64,000 bases of DNA from Lachnospiraceae bacterium (lineage in GTDB: Bacteria > Bacillota > Clostridia > Lachnospirales > Lachnospiraceae). The DNA lies in the NCBI GenBank assembly GCA_015057165.1, contig SVEY01000007.1:51537-115536 (forward strand). The letters run 5' to 3'. Below the pieces are notes generated by a model, which was not told the DNA's origin, made no database searches, and worked only from the letters and a program-made list of their open reading frames with translations. Both the position numbers and the translations under genes were made by a program. This document shows, in pieces, positions 43,619 through 58,535 of this stretch; position 1 is the first letter of the stretch; the number at the start of each line of letters is the position of its first letter.

Positions 43619-43878
43619 AAAAAAAGTCGCCTCCTTTTCGCACTTTAATAGTGAGACAAGCGGTGACTGTACACTTTACCGTGTGTGTCCTATAATTATT
43701 AGGAACAATCCTCACGGACAGTTTCTGTATTAACAAGACTACATTAGCAGTCTTTACAGACTTATTATTTGTACAGTGACTTGTCGCCAGTTTTAGTAAC
43801 TTGACATTCGCTCCACGGAAAACCTGCCAATTTACTTGGCAGCAACCTCACGCTTCATAGCTATCGATGTCACAGCAC
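43619..43878 (-). promoter_or_regulatory. ~260-nt structured 5' leader of the S10 operon
   Basis: Helices TGCCAA/TTGGCA, CTGTACA/TGTACAG (43667-43673/43770-43776) and CTTGTC/GACAAG (43655-43660/43780-43785). Confidence 0.6.
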
Positions 43879-51316: not shown

Positions 51317-51541
51317 ATGGGTAATTCATTTGAGAAAGTAAAAGAAATGATAAGCAATCCTGAGATGAAGGAAACATTAGTTAAGGTTATGAATGCGAAG
51401 TCGCCAGAAGAAATTATGGAGATTGCCAAAAATGACAATATCGCCTTGACTATGGAACAAGCCAAGACGATATTTGATGGTAAAAATAGTAACCAAGAAA
51501 TTGATCAAGAGGATCTTGATGTCATCAAAGATTTACTTTGA
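51317..51541 (+). CDS. 74-aa hypothetical protein, weakly Nif11-leader-like
   Basis: FEKVKEMISNPEMKETLVKVMNAKSPEEIMEIAKNDNIALTMEQAKTIF; AGGAGG RBS; extended -10 TGTTATAAT upstream. Confidence 0.5.
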   Translation: MGNSFEKVKEMISNPEMKETLVKVMNAKSPEEIMEIAKNDNIALTMEQAKTIFDGKNSNQEIDQEDLDVIKDLL

Positions 51542-53788
51542 TTTATTCTTATATCTTATAGTGGCAAATGTGCCAGAAGCTATTATTAAAGCAATTAATG
51601 CAATAAACAGCCCTAGATTATCGCCAGTCTTTGGTGGAGAGACTAGGGTTGTTACATTTTGTGGAGTCTCATCTGCTGGAACCTCAGCTACTACAAATGT
51701 CGAGAAGTGATTCGTTCCAATTAAGATGTAATCTCCGTCTACTATTACATCACATGCGATAAGTCTATCTCCATCCACTCTATACGCTACGTACTTATAT
51801 CCATCTATTAGTGGGAATGGACTTCTAATCTTCGCATATACTTTCCCATTTAATTGATGAAGCTGTGTGTTAGATGCATCGAATAAATCGATTTCATATA
51901 CAGCCATATTAAGTACTTTCGAAAATGCAGCTTTAATCAATGCTGCTACGTTGTCATACACTTCTCCAGAAGTGATACGCTGAATAGTAATAAATACCTG
52001 TGCTGGTAGCACTCCATAAGGATCAATTATTGTAACTGCTCCATCAGGTGAGCTATAACTTGACTCATTTGTCATATCGAACAATCTCTTCATATTAGAA
52101 GTATGTCTAAAATATGATCCAAGAGCGTAATATGATTGATATGTTGCATAGTCATTTACATCATCATTATCAGTCCATCCAAATCCTCCTCCATCTACTG
52201 AGAAAGAACATAAAGCATCTACTGCAGATACACCATTTTTTACAAATCTTGAATCTGTACTCGCATCAAGTCCAAGTTCAGATAGTCCAAGAACAACCAT
52301 TGCTGTCGTATTAGAGTTCTCATTCGTTCCAGATGTATATGTACCATCCGCTCCTTGAACTCTAGATAAGTATTCTAATGCTCTATCAACCGCTTCTCTG
52401 ACAGAATCATTACTATTATAATAAGGCGCCAACGCTGCTAGAACCATTCCTGTAGTATCAACATCTACATTGGTTCCATCCCAACCCCATGCACCATTCT
52501 CAAATTGTGCATCAAGAAGATTAGCAATATATGTTTCTCTTGCAAACGAACCATACCCCTTAGTATCAAGAGCTATTAAAGCATAGGCATAGCCATATAC
52601 GCTGTCGACTTCACTTATCGCACTTAATTGATCTGTAATACCAACTCCATCTATATTAGTTGGATCATAACCAATAGCATTAAGTGCAACCACAACCTTT
52701 GCACATTCTGTTACACTCGAAAATCTATTATTATGTGTTGCAAGATAATTCCTAACACTATCATAATATCCAGCGTACAAGCCTCCACTAACTGGATAAC
52801 CTGCTCTACCTAGTCCAATAAGATGTCCTTCTTTATAATCACCATAAGCAATACTTGGATTAGTATCTGATAGATACTTACCAGCACCTGCATATATCGC
52901 ACGCCTCTCATCCATACTCTTTGGCGATGTTGTAACTTTAGGAGATGTAGGATAATCTATGCAAAGAGTTCTAATAAGTGGTATATTGTTAGTCGCCCCA
53001 TCAAGTTCTGTCAAAAGATAGTTGCCTGACACTTCAGGTACTGCAAATTGAAAAACTCCTTCATCATTTGTTTTTACCACTTCATTTGCATATGGATTTG
53101 CATCTGCTGATACAGCCGGTACAATTTCTAATGTGTCTAAATTGAGCCAGCCAAGATCAATATTAGCCAAAGGAAACACAACAGGACTATAGTTTTCATC
53201 AAAACCATATTTAACAAGTTTTCCTGATAAATAACCACCTTCACTTACAACATCCTCAAAGGATGTATATAAATCAGACCAACCTACCTGATAATACCAA
53301 GCTTCTACAACATTACCATCATCAACTTTGTCACTTAATCCACCACACATAGCATGGTTTATATAATAAGAACAAGCACTCTCACCTTTGGCAAATGCAT
53401 TAGTAATGCTCCAACTATGATAATAATTATTATATTCTGTTTTGAAATATTGTTCCTTATTTGCTTGAGTACTATCCGCAGTAAACTCAGGGAATATGTC
53501 CTTATGCATCTGTACCAAAACATCCAGAACAGACACTCCCTGATTCTGTGCCAAGGTATCTGTATATCCAAAGCTCTCCGCCGTATCGGATGACACCGGC
53601 ACATTAACCTTAACATCCTTAAAGCTTCCATCAAATTGAGCAGTATAAGTAATCGTTGCCGTAACTACTCCATCAGCCTTTGCATTAATAGTATCAAAAT
53701 CAATACCTGCTGCAAGCAAGGACAATGTCATTACTAATGCAATAGCACCTGCTCCTATTCTTTTTAATAATTTCTTTGAATTAAACAT
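51533..53788 (-). CDS. Surface-anchored alpha/alpha-barrel (prenyltransferase/terpene-cyclase-like repeat) protein, putative cobalamin-binding
   Basis: Signal peptide; repeats WGWDGTNVDVDTTGMVLAAL, GTYTSGTNENSNTTAMVVLGL; C-terminal SPPKTGD + TM + RYKNKSK sorting signal; start corrected. Confidence 0.7.
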   Translation of the reverse strand: MFNSKKLLKRIGAGAIALVMTLSLLAAGIDFDTINAKADGVVTATITYTAQFDGSFKDVKVNVPVSSDTAESFGYTDTLAQNQGVSVLDVLVQMHKDIFPEFTADSTQANKEQYFKTEYNNYYHSWSITNAFAKGESACSYYINHAMCGGLSDKVDDGNVVEAWYYQVGWSDLYTSFEDVVSEGGYLSGKLVKYGFDENYSPVVFPLANIDLGWLNLDTLEIVPAVSADANPYANEVVKTNDEGVFQFAVPEVSGNYLLTELDGATNNIPLIRTLCIDYPTSPKVTTSPKSMDERRAIYAGAGKYLSDTNPSIAYGDYKEGHLIGLGRAGYPVSGGLYAGYYDSVRNYLATHNNRFSSVTECAKVVVALNAIGYDPTNIDGVGITDQLSAISEVDSVYGYAYALIALDTKGYGSFARETYIANLLDAQFENGAWGWDGTNVDVDTTGMVLAALAPYYNSNDSVREAVDRALEYLSRVQGADGTYTSGTNENSNTTAMVVLGLSELGLDASTDSRFVKNGVSAVDALCSFSVDGGGFGWTDNDDVNDYATYQSYYALGSYFRHTSNMKRLFDMTNESSYSSPDGAVTIIDPYGVLPAQVFITIQRITSGEVYDNVAALIKAAFSKVLNMAVYEIDLFDASNTQLHQLNGKVYAKIRSPFPLIDGYKYVAYRVDGDRLIACDVIVDGDYILIGTNHFSTFVVAEVPADETPQNVTTLVSPPKTGDNLGLFIALIALIIASGTFATIRYKNKSK

Positions 53789-53848
53789 TTCGCTTCCTCC
53801 CATCAATTACTAAAATATATTTAATTCATTCTTATAACATACCAATAA

Positions 53849-54619
53849 TCACGCACGTCGCACGCGATAGAATCCATATTTAATCTTCACTCTTTCAAGC
53901 TTTCTTAAGATAGCATTTCCAAATATAAATACAAACACTGCTGCTCTAAATGCATGCCATAAATCAAATGGTGCGCCCGTTACATAAAGTGCAAGCAAAG
54001 CATCCAGTGATAAATCTGCGGCACTCATTGAACTCATGAACATCGTTCCAATATTCATAATGCCACCATACAATATGAACACCACAAAGAAGGTAAACAC
54101 CGCAAGCGTAATATCATCTGCCGGCATTCGTTTTCGCTGAATTATTGCTCCAATTATTAAGCCTACTAATCCAAATGCATATAGTCTCCAGCCCAAGAAA
54201 GTGGTCTCCCCGTTAGGCCAGATTAGATATGATAGGTAAGCAATTACTTCCACTACAAGTACTGCAGTAACTGGACCAACTAGCACCTTAAAATCTCTTG
54301 AACGAGGTGCCTCAATATCCACTTTAGAAAACACTAGACCAGCTATAGCACCAAGAAGTCCCCAACAACACATTTGCCAGATAGTCCACACTCCCTGTCC
54401 AGTGAAGAAATTAACAATAAGTCTCGACAGCATTCCTATTATTGCACCAACTATAGGTCCGAATGCAATGCCCGATATTATCACCATACCAGTTCCTGCC
54501 TGTATGGGAAGTATAGGAAATGATAATAGATTGCCAAGAACCGTTATCGCCGACATAACCGCAATCATTACAACTTCTCTTGCCTTGACTTTACGGCTTC
54601 TTACATTTCGTCTCTGCAA
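53849..54619 (-). CDS. ECF transporter S component (putative cobalamin specificity subunit)
   Basis: REVVMIAVMSAITVLGNLLSFP...GPIVGAIIGMLSRLIVNFFTGQG; directly precedes ECF ATPase in the operon. Confidence 0.8.
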   Translation of the reverse strand: MQRRNVRSRKVKAREVVMIAVMSAITVLGNLLSFPILPIQAGTGMVIISGIAFGPIVGAIIGMLSRLIVNFFTGQGVWTIWQMCCWGLLGAIAGLVFSKVDIEAPRSRDFKVLVGPVTAVLVVEVIAYLSYLIWPNGETTFLGWRLYAFGLVGLIIGAIIQRKRMPADDITLAVFTFFVVFILYGGIMNIGTMFMSSMSAADLSLDALLALYVTGAPFDLWHAFRAAVFVFIFGNAILRKLERVKIKYGFYRVRRA

Positions 54620-56301
54620 AATGCAATCACCTCCTCAGGTAGTATCGCTTCTGGAGCGTGTCGTCTTGCAATTCTATTAGATGCAGTTGTAAAGAATTTG
54701 TTACCAGCAAAGAATTCTCTTCGTGGCAATGTTGATACTACTCTTCCATCATGAAGCATGGCACAGCGACTAGCAAACCTTGCACAAAATTCTATATCAT
54801 GGCTTACCATAAGAATTGTCACGCCCGCTTCGGTTAGCTTATTAAGCATATTTCCTAATTCAATTTTTCTATCATAATCTAAGCCTTTAGTGGGCTCATC
54901 CATTAGTATTATTCGAGGTTCTAATAATAATAGTTTTGCAAATGCTAATACTTGCTGCTGACCAAAACTTAAATCATAGGGATGGAACTTCTCATATCCA
55001 TCTAATCCAACACCAGATAACATCTTGACTGTTCTGTCCTTTTTATCGGACACCGATATATCTAGGCCATGTAATGCTTCTTCTAATTCTTCAATAACAG
55101 TTACCTCTGTAAATAGTGCCATAGGATCTTGGGGAAGATAAACCATACCTTCATATCCTAATGGTGCATCCTTAACAGATTTTACCTTCTTTCCAAAAAC
55201 CTCTATCGTGCCGTAAGCTTGCTTTAAAGTCTGACATAGCACTGATAGTAAAGTACTCTTACCTGTTCCATTGCCACCCATAAGGGCAAATATCTCCCCT
55301 TCGTATACATCTAGGTTACAATCATTAAGCACTGCCTTAGACTCATCATATGCAAAGCCTATTTCTTTCATTCGAAGAACGATATTGCGCTTCGACTCTT
55401 CCTTATTTTCATCATGTAGCGTTCTCTTCTTATCAGAAAATGCGAATCTTTTCGCCATCCACCGTTGACCTTCTGCAACAGTTAGAGGCAAGCTAGTCTC
55501 ATCATCAGCCGAACCAAAACTACAGCTATCCGAATTTGCATCGCCCAGACCTTCAACATTCCTTGCAATAATCAGTGAAGTGGGAAGCCCACTTTTGAAG
55601 TTCAACTTAGCTGCAACATCACGAGGATTGCCAACATAATCAATACGAGCCTTGCTCATAGCCACAACCTTAGTAGCCATTCCATACACATCTTCTAGGT
55701 GATGCTCAACTACAATTATAGTAGTACCAAGTTCTGTATTAATCCTATTTAACATATCAAGGAAATTCCTTGCCGCTAGAGGATCAAGTTGCGCAATCGG
55801 CTCATCTAATATAAGAACTCTCGGTTCCATTACCATAACAGCAGCAAGATGAACCATCTGCATTTCGCCGCCTGACAGGGAATCCACGCTTCTATTAATC
55901 CAACTTTGCATTCCGAAGAATTCACATATTTCAGCTATCCTTCGTTGCATTGTTTCGTTGCTAAGTCCAAGATTCTCCATTCCAAATGCCAGCTCATGCC
56001 ACACCTTATCTGTAATCATTTGACTACTTGGATTTTGCCCTACATAGCCTATCTCTCTTGCAAGGATACGATCCTCATATTCCTCCACATCTTTATCGCA
56101 GAAATTAATCACACCTTCCCTTGTTCCATAAGGCGCAATGCTTGGAATAAGCTGCTTAATAAATGTTGTCTTACCACAACCTGAAGGTCCACAAATAAGC
56201 ACAAACTCCCCTTCATCTATAGTAAGATTAATATCATTTAGAGTAGGCTTATCATCGCCAGGATAGCTAAATATTAAGTTTTGTATATCTATTAATCTCA
56301 C
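54601..56301 (-). CDS. Fused double ECF transporter ATPase
   Basis: Two ABC domains: CGPSGCGKTT/LSGGEMQMVHLA and GGNGTGKST/LSFGQQQVLAFAKLL. Confidence 0.92.
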   Translation of the reverse strand: MRLIDIQNLIFSYPGDDKPTLNDINLTIDEGEFVLICGPSGCGKTTFIKQLIPSIAPYGTREGVINFCDKDVEEYEDRILAREIGYVGQNPSSQMITDKVWHELAFGMENLGLSNETMQRRIAEICEFFGMQSWINRSVDSLSGGEMQMVHLAAVMVMEPRVLILDEPIAQLDPLAARNFLDMLNRINTELGTTIIVVEHHLEDVYGMATKVVAMSKARIDYVGNPRDVAAKLNFKSGLPTSLIIARNVEGLGDANSDSCSFGSADDETSLPLTVAEGQRWMAKRFAFSDKKRTLHDENKEESKRNIVLRMKEIGFAYDESKAVLNDCNLDVYEGEIFALMGGNGTGKSTLLSVLCQTLKQAYGTIEVFGKKVKSVKDAPLGYEGMVYLPQDPMALFTEVTVIEELEEALHGLDISVSDKKDRTVKMLSGVGLDGYEKFHPYDLSFGQQQVLAFAKLLLLEPRIILMDEPTKGLDYDRKIELGNMLNKLTEAGVTILMVSHDIEFCARFASRCAMLHDGRVVSTLPRREFFAGNKFFTTASNRIARRHAPEAILPEEVIAFCRDEM

Positions 56302-57186
56302 TTATTTCCACCCTAGAATTCTACTAGCCAACACTGGCACCAACATATATGCAAGATAGAAGATACTTAGAATTAGCATTTCATATATATCACCCATCAT
56401 GCCAAATGTCGGATAATAATAAACCTTGTATCCGCTAAATACTGTTACGATAAACGCCGGCACCAAAAGCCCAACAATTATTATCAAAAAGATTGCATCC
56501 GAAGTCTTAATTCTATAATTAGAACAATTACTTCTTCGTCCCACGCCATATCCCATGGCTGTCATTGTCTGGGAAGTGTCAATTGCATTTTCAAGAGTCC
56601 AGGAAATCACAATGGAAAATTCCTTGCCCCACTGCCTTGCTCTCTTAAATGGACCTTTTGTTACATTTCTTCCCATGCCAGCTTGAGCATTATGTACGGT
56701 GTTCATTCTTCTTCGAAGCATAGGTATATAATGAAGCGTCATTGCTATAACAAGACCAAGACTTGGAGCGAAGCTTCCGAACATAAATGTCAGCTTCTCA
56801 CCTGTAATAATACGCTGCATTATGTCGCACCACAGAAATGCTGCTGCAAACATCAGTCCAAATACCGCGCCATACATTCCTGCTTCAACTGTAATTCTAT
56901 TATCATTTATTAGAAATAGGACATGCATCCCATTATGAGATATAAGCATATTTCCTATTGTGGTTATAACAATAATTAGAAGTAGCCAGGGTATATATCT
57001 AAGATATTTCTTTCCCCCTTGTAAATGAATCTCATACAAGGAAGCTCCAAACAATGATAGCAATATCAATAATGGATTGACGCTACACATTGTAAGTACA
57101 AGCGCCATAACTAGATATATAAATGCAAACCAAGGATGAATTAACCCTAATCCTCTATTATCTAATAGCTTATTACGTAGTACCAT
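56302..57186 (-). CDS. ECF transporter T component
   Basis: Polytopic; QAGMGRNVTKGPFKRARQWG, AMGYGVGRRSNCS. Confidence 0.8.
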   Translation of the reverse strand: MVLRNKLLDNRGLGLIHPWFAFIYLVMALVLTMCSVNPLLILLSLFGASLYEIHLQGGKKYLRYIPWLLLIIVITTIGNMLISHNGMHVLFLINDNRITVEAGMYGAVFGLMFAAAFLWCDIMQRIITGEKLTFMFGSFAPSLGLVIAMTLHYIPMLRRRMNTVHNAQAGMGRNVTKGPFKRARQWGKEFSIVISWTLENAIDTSQTMTAMGYGVGRRSNCSNYRIKTSDAIFLIIIVGLLVPAFIVTVFSGYKVYYYPTFGMMGDIYEMLILSIFYLAYMLVPVLASRILGWK

Positions 57187-58013
57187 AATATATCCTCGCC
57201 GCCTTTAAGATAATAAGAATTACAACCCCTGTTAGGTGCTCTTCCATTCACATTATACATCCAACCACTATCATGTCCCGCATCAAATTCCTTTAGATGA
57301 TTAATCGCACTCACATATGAAGAACCCTTGAATGCATACTGAATGCCATTAGCATCACAAGCTTGCTTTAACGCCTCATCAACGCCAACTCTTCCATCAC
57401 CATTGGTATCAGATATGGTCATAGTTCGTGTCGATAAAATACTTGGATTAGCTGCGTAAGGTTCTAACTGAGGGTTACCATTTGCAGTCAATACGCCATT
57501 ACCACTTATAGAAGAACAATCAATAGCTATTGTACAGTCAACTGATGCACGTGGTTGCTCTTCGCCTGATCCTGACCAATCACCAGAGCCTCCATCAGAA
57601 CTATAAGTTGTCCCCCAGGAATTAGCTGTAGACGCATCATTAGAAGCCCCACCAACTCCAGCCATGCCAGCTCCACCAACACCAGCCGAAGAACCATCGC
57701 CTGTAATCATTCCAGTGCTTCCATCGTAACTTGTTCCATTTCCACCAGCCTTAGTAGCATTTAATTTTGCCAAGTCTTCTTCTGTTACATTAGCATTAAA
57801 CAGATTGGTATCATCCGTTGTTGAATTAGTTGTATTTGCTTTGGCTGTTAGTTCCGTGTTCGAAGAACCATCACTAGACCTATCAGCTGATGATATAGTA
57901 ACGCCAAGTCCAATACCGGCCGCAGTCAGTACAACTATCGCAATAACAATTACAATCTTAATATTCTTTTTTTCTTTAAAAAAGTCAATGGATTTTTCCT
58001 TAAAGCTTCTCAT
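57162..58013 (-). CDS. Membrane-anchored DUF4430 (transcobalamin-like beta domain) protein
   Basis: VDCTIAIDCSS..., GHDSGWMYNVNGRAPNRGCNSYYLKGGEDILWYYV; N-terminal TM and Gly/Ser linker. Confidence 0.82.
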   Translation of the reverse strand: MRSFKEKSIDFFKEKKNIKIVIVIAIVVLTAAGIGLGVTISSADRSSDGSSNTELTAKANTTNSTTDDTNLFNANVTEEDLAKLNATKAGGNGTSYDGSTGMITGDGSSAGVGGAGMAGVGGASNDASTANSWGTTYSSDGGSGDWSGSGEEQPRASVDCTIAIDCSSISGNGVLTANGNPQLEPYAANPSILSTRTMTISDTNGDGRVGVDEALKQACDANGIQYAFKGSSYVSAINHLKEFDAGHDSGWMYNVNGRAPNRGCNSYYLKGGEDILWYYVISY

Positions 58014-58080
58014 TATTTCTTCCTAATACAAGTCGCATTTCCTATAATTAACCACCCTGCTTACAAGTCACATTTCCAAT

Positions 58081-58112
58081 AAAAAAATCTGCCCTGCCAT
58101 AAGGCAAAGCAG
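58081..58112 (-). terminator. Riboswitch-associated intrinsic terminator upstream of the DUF4430 gene
   Basis: TCTGC..TGCC-TTAT-GGCA..GCAGA followed by TTTTTTT on minus strand. Confidence 0.85.
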
Positions 58113-58285
58113 AATTAATAATTATACGCATAGTAATACAAAGTCTCCGCCATCACATATATCGTGAGATTACATGTATTATGAAAGCACGCATAATGCG
58201 AAATCACACATAATGCAATTACTAAGACTCGTAGTTAATACGCGGCACTTTCTGCTCCATTGCCCAAGCAAAACAATCCTCTCTT

Positions 58286-58447
58286 ATGACAGGTCTCCTG
58301 GCTTGTAGATTGTACACATAGTGTACGTAGTGATAAACCTTCTCAAACTCATCCATTCACAAATGGTGTCCGTTCAATGGTGCACATATCACCTAGTCTC
58401 TTACAGTAATGGCTGTTGCTTCGGCTTCTAACCGAATTCCCTATTAA
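58286..58447 (-). promoter_or_regulatory. Cobalamin (AdoCbl/B12) riboswitch aptamer
   Basis: Minus strand TTAATAGGGAATTCGGTTAGAAGCCGAAGCAACAGCC...ACTGTAA...AAGCCAGGAGACCTGTC (B12 box). Confidence 0.92.
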
Positions 58448-58535
58448 GTATTGCTACATCATAAGATATGTATGTATATTATATTTTCAATCTGTAAAAT
58501 GTTATATTATTTATACAGTATTATTCGTAATGATA

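What the first reader, a model, noticed from the sequence alone, without database searches (positions are those of the whole stretch)
51533..58447. B12-riboswitch-controlled ECF importer with split transcobalamin-like exported proteins
Seen: a cobalamin riboswitch (B12 box on minus strand) and an intrinsic terminator precede a five-gene operon of DUF4430 protein, EcfT, fused double EcfA, ECF S component, and a 752-aa sortase-type surface protein with prenyltransferase/terpene-cyclase-like repeats. Established: mammalian intrinsic factor/transcobalamin consist of an alpha/alpha barrel plus a beta domain related to DUF4430. Inference: the two halves are on separate exported polypeptides that capture cobalamin or cobinamide and hand it to a dedicated ECF transporter.
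Basis: partly seen in the sequence, partly recalled or inferred. Interest (0 to 1): 0.8.

Follow-up and report, generated by a model that had tools for sequence, protein, structure and literature searches.

The report
Riboswitch-controlled B12 importer with transcobalamin-like proteins
A gut/rumen-type Firmicute carries a vitamin-B12-switched operon that pairs a membrane B12 importer with exported proteins folded like the parts of human transcobalamin/intrinsic factor; this kind of system was predicted from genomes in 2007 but appears never to have been tested, and here it looks like the organism's only way to obtain B12.

Summary
A cobalamin riboswitch (RF00174, 79.7 bits), the only one in the genome, and an intrinsic terminator lead a five-gene minus-strand operon: membrane-anchored DUF4430 protein, EcfT, fused EcfA-EcfA, S component, and a wall-anchored alpha/alpha-toroid protein. 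The DUF4430 domain models confidently; 17 of its 19 significant PDB matches are transcobalamin, intrinsic factor or haptocorrin, the other two a gut-bacterial protein (3u7z). The S family matches the B12 S component CbrT (6fnp, E 2e-20) far better than any other. The genome lacks CbiD, CobS, BtuF-type proteins, PduO and MetE but has MetH, so this is its best candidate cobamide importer. The gene set recurs in 50 of 57 named Firmicute loci, with an upstream cobalamin riboswitch in 37 of 47. Corrections: the toroid fold is not specific to transcobalamin; in most relatives the toroid chain also carries a DUF4430 domain, so 'split' is at best partial; cobinamide is an unlikely useful substrate without CobS. 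Prior art: Burroughs et al. 2007 predicted SLBB/toroid surface proteins with CbiO/CbiQ operons for B12 scavenging. So it is a well-supported new member of a predicted, untested kind.

The parts
58271..58478 (-). Cobalamin riboswitch aptamer (RF00174)
   Evidence: 79.7 bits, cut-off 31.5, model 1-189; only one in the genome
58088..58113 (-). Intrinsic terminator between aptamer and first gene (putative expression platform)
   Evidence: 11-bp stem, T-run, 0.2 expected by chance; similar hairpin in same position in L057, L058, L059, L032
57162..58013 (-). Gene 1: 283-aa protein, N-terminal TM anchor, flexible linker, C-terminal DUF4430/SLBB domain
57171..57545 (-). SLBB (transcobalamin beta-domain-like) domain, residues 157-281
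   Evidence: AlphaFold pLDDT mostly >90; 17 of 19 PDB matches with E<=0.001 are transcobalamin, intrinsic factor or haptocorrin, the other two are 3u7z
56302..57186 (-). Gene 2: EcfT
   Evidence: family profile A7 vs PDB EcfT 5d3m E 3.1e-15; CbiQ in 6 of 12 members
54601..56301 (-). Gene 3: fused EcfA-EcfA ATPase
   Evidence: two ABC_tran stretches; TIGR04520/04521 best NCBIfam hits, both below cut-off
53849..54619 (-). Gene 4: S component, CbrT-like
   Evidence: ECF_trnsprt; best PDB match 6fnp E 3e-5 alone, 2.2e-20 as family profile, next RibU 6.4e-7
51533..53788 (-). Gene 5: 751-aa exported surface protein (N-domain, beta domain, alpha/alpha toroid, beta domain, sortase-type C-terminus)
52064..52921 (-). 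alpha/alpha toroid domain, residues 290-575
   Evidence: AlphaFold pLDDT about 75-98; profile matches squalene-hopene cyclase E 9e-11; Foldseek toroids incl. transcobalamin
53144..53674 (-). N-terminal beta domain of toroid protein, possibly a divergent SLBB
   Evidence: pattern only: helix then GY-N...D-V-DG...A-YQ; not found by DUF4430 or SLBB profiles
51620..51637 (-). PPKTGD sortase-type motif followed by TM helix and basic tail
   Evidence: sequence; similar xTGD tails in many relatives; sortases present

Best explanation
This is a B12-repressed cobamide uptake operon. When intracellular cobalamin is scarce the riboswitch lets transcription pass the terminator (inferred). EcfT, the double ATPase and a CbrT-like S component form an ECF importer for intact cobamides (family assignment shown; substrate inferred). 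Two exported proteins collect the vitamin at the surface: a wall-anchored alpha/alpha-toroid protein and a membrane-tethered protein with a transcobalamin beta-type SLBB domain. They most likely bind B12 and pass it to the S component, as transcobalamin/intrinsic factor hold B12 between toroid and beta domain (inferred). The imported cobamide serves MetH, the only methionine synthase type found.
For: Riboswitch and terminator. S component closest to the biochemically proven B12 transporter CbrT (PMC5997447). SLBB model matches transcobalamin/IF/haptocorrin. Own genome: no CbiD (55), CobS (52), Peripla_BP_2/BtuF (54), PduO (90), MetE (74); MetH present. Gene set conserved: 15 of 20 family loci, 50 of 57 named loci of 15 kb or more; 57 of 64 toroid matches have DUF4430 within 10 kb against about 1.5% by chance; cobalamin riboswitch upstream on the same strand in 37 of 47 loci.
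Against: No ligand-binding or transport data. The S component CbrT binds B12 by itself with nM affinity, so the surface proteins need not hand over anything. The toroid fold is shared by terpene cyclases, prenyltransferases and complement proteins and is not specific. Residues contacting B12 in transcobalamin were not mapped. BtuR- and EutT-type adenosyltransferases and other corrinoid transporters were not searched.
Confidence: 0.8

Rival explanations
1. The ECF complex alone imports B12; the two exported proteins are co-regulated but do something else, such as adhesion, matrix or polysaccharide binding.
For: CbrT needs no extracellular binder (PMC5997447); toroid chains in relatives are often giant multidomain surface proteins up to about 3400 aa and sometimes lie away from ECF genes (L033, L035, L036, L049, L050).
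Against: The only solved structures the SLBB domain resembles significantly are B12 carriers and one gut-bacterial protein, 3u7z; toroid genes without ECF neighbours still have cobalamin riboswitch matches in L033 and L050.
Confidence: 0.15
2. The system imports cobinamide or another corrinoid precursor rather than intact cobamides.
For: CbrT transports cobinamide too.
Against: No CobS and no CbiD in the genome, so cobinamide could not be completed by the usual route; only MetH and radical-SAM users found.
Confidence: 0.06
3. It is a cobalt importer of the CbiMNQO type regulated by B12.
For: EcfT relatives match CbiQ; the S component has a weak CbiM match.
Against: No corrin-ring synthesis marker (CbiD) to use cobalt; S profile matches CbrT at 2.2e-20; the CbiM match is just below its cut-off.
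Confidence: 0.03
4. The toroid is an exported enzyme (terpene-cyclase or lyase-like) rather than a ligand carrier.
For: Sequence profiles match squalene-hopene cyclase.
Against: Operon, riboswitch and linked SLBB domains point to B12; Pfam match scores fall below family cut-offs; cyclases of this fold act on isoprenoids in membrane or cytosol (general knowledge).
Confidence: 0.05

Closest known systems
SLBB transcobalamin-like clade of Gram-positive surface proteins (Burroughs et al. 2007, PMC1796856)
   Same: Exported SLBB and alpha/alpha toroid proteins, a second paralogous SLBB protein, CbiO- and CbiQ-like genes in the operon, hosts lacking B12 synthesis; predicted B12 scavenging.
   Different: The paper's text mentions neither riboswitch nor S component; in the window clade the toroid chain lacks a recognisable DUF4430, and the stand-alone SLBB has an EF-hand-like insert.
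ECF-CbrT, vitamin B12 transporter of Lactobacillus delbrueckii (6fnp, PMC5997447)
   Same: S component family, EcfT family, ECF mechanism expected.
   Different: No extracellular binding proteins are described for CbrT; here a dedicated module with fused EcfA and two exported proteins. The window S component has an insert of about 60 residues.
Animal transcobalamin, intrinsic factor, haptocorrin
   Same: Beta-grasp SLBB domain and alpha/alpha toroid fold.
   Different: Animals have toroid then SLBB on one soluble chain; here separate membrane- and wall-anchored chains, and the toroid match is not specific.
BtuG/BtuH surface B12-binding lipoproteins of Bacteroides (PMC6143338, PMC8941943)
   Same: Surface-exposed B12 capture feeding a transporter (analogy).
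   Different: They belong to Bacteroidetes B12 transport loci; no relationship of fold or sequence was tested here.

Membership tests
Cobalamin riboswitch RF00174 | Score over the curated cut-off, full model | tested here: met
   79.7 against 31.5 bits, positions 1-189
ECF transporter with dedicated module | EcfT, two EcfA ATPase domains and an S component together | tested here: met
CbrT-type B12 S component | Closest to CbrT among solved S components | tested here: met
   6fnp 2.2e-20, RibU 6.4e-7, 4hzu 6.3e-5
CbrT-type B12 S component | Binds and transports cobalamin | not testable with these tools
   needs binding and transport assay
SLBB / DUF4430 transcobalamin beta-like domain | Sequence profile and beta-grasp fold | tested here: met
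   Pfam 64.2 bits; Foldseek TM 0.71 to 5no0 by target length
Transcobalamin/intrinsic factor family | Toroid specifically like the transcobalamin alpha domain | tested here: inconclusive
   transcobalamin 2v3n at rank 17 among generic toroids
Transcobalamin/intrinsic factor family | Toroid and SLBB on one chain | tested here: inconclusive
   common in relatives, not detected in the window toroid chain
Transcobalamin/intrinsic factor family | Binds B12 | not testable with these tools
   no ligand docking or assay available
Burroughs 2007 SLBB-CbiOQ operons | Host lacks key B12 synthesis genes | tested here: met
   no CbiD, CobS

The most novel reading that the evidence does not exclude
An ECF transporter, a class whose S component normally does the binding itself, is fed by a surface relay made from the two folds of transcobalamin, physically separated here into a wall-anchored toroid and a membrane-tethered SLBB domain that close around B12 and dock on the S component; such bacterial systems would be the likely source of animal B12 carriers.
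Probability: 0.35. Interest if true: 0.75.

Novelty: new member of a known kind. Interest (0 to 1): 0.5.

Why it matters
How Firmicutes of gut and rumen acquire B12 is poorly known; [quoted passage not shown] A widespread riboswitch-controlled operon with transcobalamin-type binding domains gives concrete proteins to test, bears on competition for B12, and would test the proposed bacterial origin of animal intrinsic factor and transcobalamin.

Tried and rejected
Profile-profile comparison of the toroid protein's N-domain with DUF4430 gave the expected register but no support (prob 2.3%, E 0.021), and SLBB profiles from relatives did not find it, nor did Pfam; left open. The N-domain model is low confidence, so it was not used. 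Foldseek of the full toroid model gave mixed toroids and was not taken as evidence for transcobalamin specifically. Lists of riboswitch and DUF4430 matches in 250 genomes were cut by the tool, so I did not compute genome-wide riboswitch linkage from them, only toroid-DUF4430 linkage (from listed rows; the DUF4430 match may lie in the toroid ORF itself). Riboswitch positions in named loci were mapped by contig coordinates and checked for a B12-box pattern (chance 6% per 80 nt). An earlier count said 16 of 20 loci have the ECF set; the count is 15.

Full report
Observation. Every element in the finding is present. A full-length cobalamin riboswitch lies at 58478-58271 on the minus strand (79.7 bits, cut-off 31.5), just after secA and before a five-gene minus-strand operon. 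It is the only cobalamin riboswitch in the genome. An intrinsic terminator sits at 58113-58088, between aptamer and first gene, and four relatives keep a hairpin plus T-rich tail at that place although the sequences differ. The expression platform is therefore probably transcriptional; this is inferred.

Gene identities. Gene 1 has an N-terminal TM helix, a low-complexity linker and a DUF4430 domain (model). Gene 2 has no Pfam match alone, but its family profile finds EcfT of solved ECF complexes (E 3e-15), and six of 12 members match CbiQ. Gene 3 has two ABC ATPase domains. Gene 4 is an S component whose family profile matches CbrT of the L. delbrueckii B12 transporter at 2e-20, against 6e-7 for RibU and 6e-5 for 4hzu. 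Gene 5 is an exported 751-residue protein with a confidently modelled alpha/alpha toroid at residues 290-575 and a PPKTGD, TM helix and basic tail; the genome has five sortases.

Structure. The SLBB model (mostly pLDDT over 90) gives 19 PDB matches with E at most 0.001: seventeen are transcobalamin, intrinsic factor or haptocorrin and two are chains of 3u7z, a gut-bacterial protein annotated only as putative metal binding. The toroid model matches many toroids (complement, farnesyltransferase, squalene cyclase), with transcobalamin first at rank 17; sequence profiles favour squalene-hopene cyclase. So the beta half is specific evidence and the toroid half is only compatible.

Is it split? In most relatives the toroid ORF itself has a DUF4430 match, and a second short protein carries a stronger one. 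The window clade (window, L032/L056, L057-L059) differs: its N-domain has a helix followed by a GY-N...DG...YQ pattern like SLBB but no profile recognises it. Either it is a divergent SLBB or this clade is genuinely split.

Conservation. Fifteen of 20 family loci hold toroid, DUF4430, EcfT and EcfAA together; thirteen of the 20 carry a cobalamin riboswitch match. In 250 genomes of the family, 57 of 64 toroid matches have DUF4430 within 10 kb, where chance gives about 1.5%. In a second set of named genomes including Paenibacillus, Cohnella, Ruminococcus bromii, Clostridium tagluense and Fusibacter, 50 of 57 loci of at least 15 kb have DUF4430, EcfT and EcfAA, and 37 of 47 have a same-strand cobalamin riboswitch upstream. 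The two sets overlap in a few genomes (for example L056 is L032).

Physiology. The genome (100% complete by the tool's estimate) has no match to CbiD, CobS, BtuF-type Peripla_BP_2, PduO or MetE, while controls ring. It has MetH and a B12-binding radical SAM protein. So it is predicted to need external, complete cobamide for methionine synthesis, and this operon is the only B12-regulated locus and the only importer candidate found. BtuR- and EutT-type adenosyltransferases were not searched.

Mechanism. Shown by sequence: riboswitch, terminator, ECF module, CbrT-like S, exported SLBB and toroid proteins. Inferred: repression by cobalamin, cobamide as substrate, B12 binding by the exported proteins, and hand-over to S. 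CbrT itself binds B12 at nM affinity without helpers, so the surface proteins may only raise local concentration.

Prior art. Burroughs et al. 2007 described SLBB plus toroid surface proteins in low-GC Gram-positives, their paralogous SLBB partners, operons with CbiO- and CbiQ-like genes, the missing B12 synthesis, and proposed B12 scavenging and transfer to animals (PMC1796856). CbrT was predicted by Rodionov et al. 2009 and proved in 2018 (PMC5997447). I found no experimental paper on the combined system in the open library, which lacks most subscription journals.

Noticed in passing
57375-57410 (-): EF-hand-like loop DTNGDGRVGVDE inserted in the SLBB domain, shared only with the close relative L032 among the 16 aligned; a similar loop occurs in N-domains of L033 and L036 surface proteins. 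Suggests calcium-dependent folding.
   Followed up: partly
57516-57536 (-), residues 160 and 166 of the DUF4430 protein: Two cysteines (CTIAIDC) invariant in all 16 aligned stand-alone SLBB proteins; role unknown, could be disulfide or ligand.
   Followed up: no
54146-54325 (-), S component: Insert of about 60 residues in the S component of this clade relative to other family members.
   Followed up: no
43781-43866 (-): S10-Clostridia ribosomal protein leader, 87.9 bits.
   Followed up: no
51317-51541 (+): Small ORF (74 aa) convergent with the toroid gene; only a sub-threshold DUF2624 match.
   Followed up: partly
L053 66-2772: Elsewhere in the same genome: a radical SAM protein followed by a B12-binding radical SAM protein, a second possible B12 user.
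   Followed up: partly
L071 1312-3565 and 12996-13241: Four cobalamin riboswitches on one strand around one toroid/ECF cluster; three stand in tandem about 1 kb apart, next to short DUF4430 ORFs.
   Followed up: no
L033 915-11063, L037 2884-11037, L039 3063-10880: Giant exported toroid proteins of about 2600-3400 aa in relatives.
   Followed up: no
L034, L037, L039, L042-L045, L047: In many relatives EcfA-EcfA and the S component are one polypeptide.
   Followed up: partly
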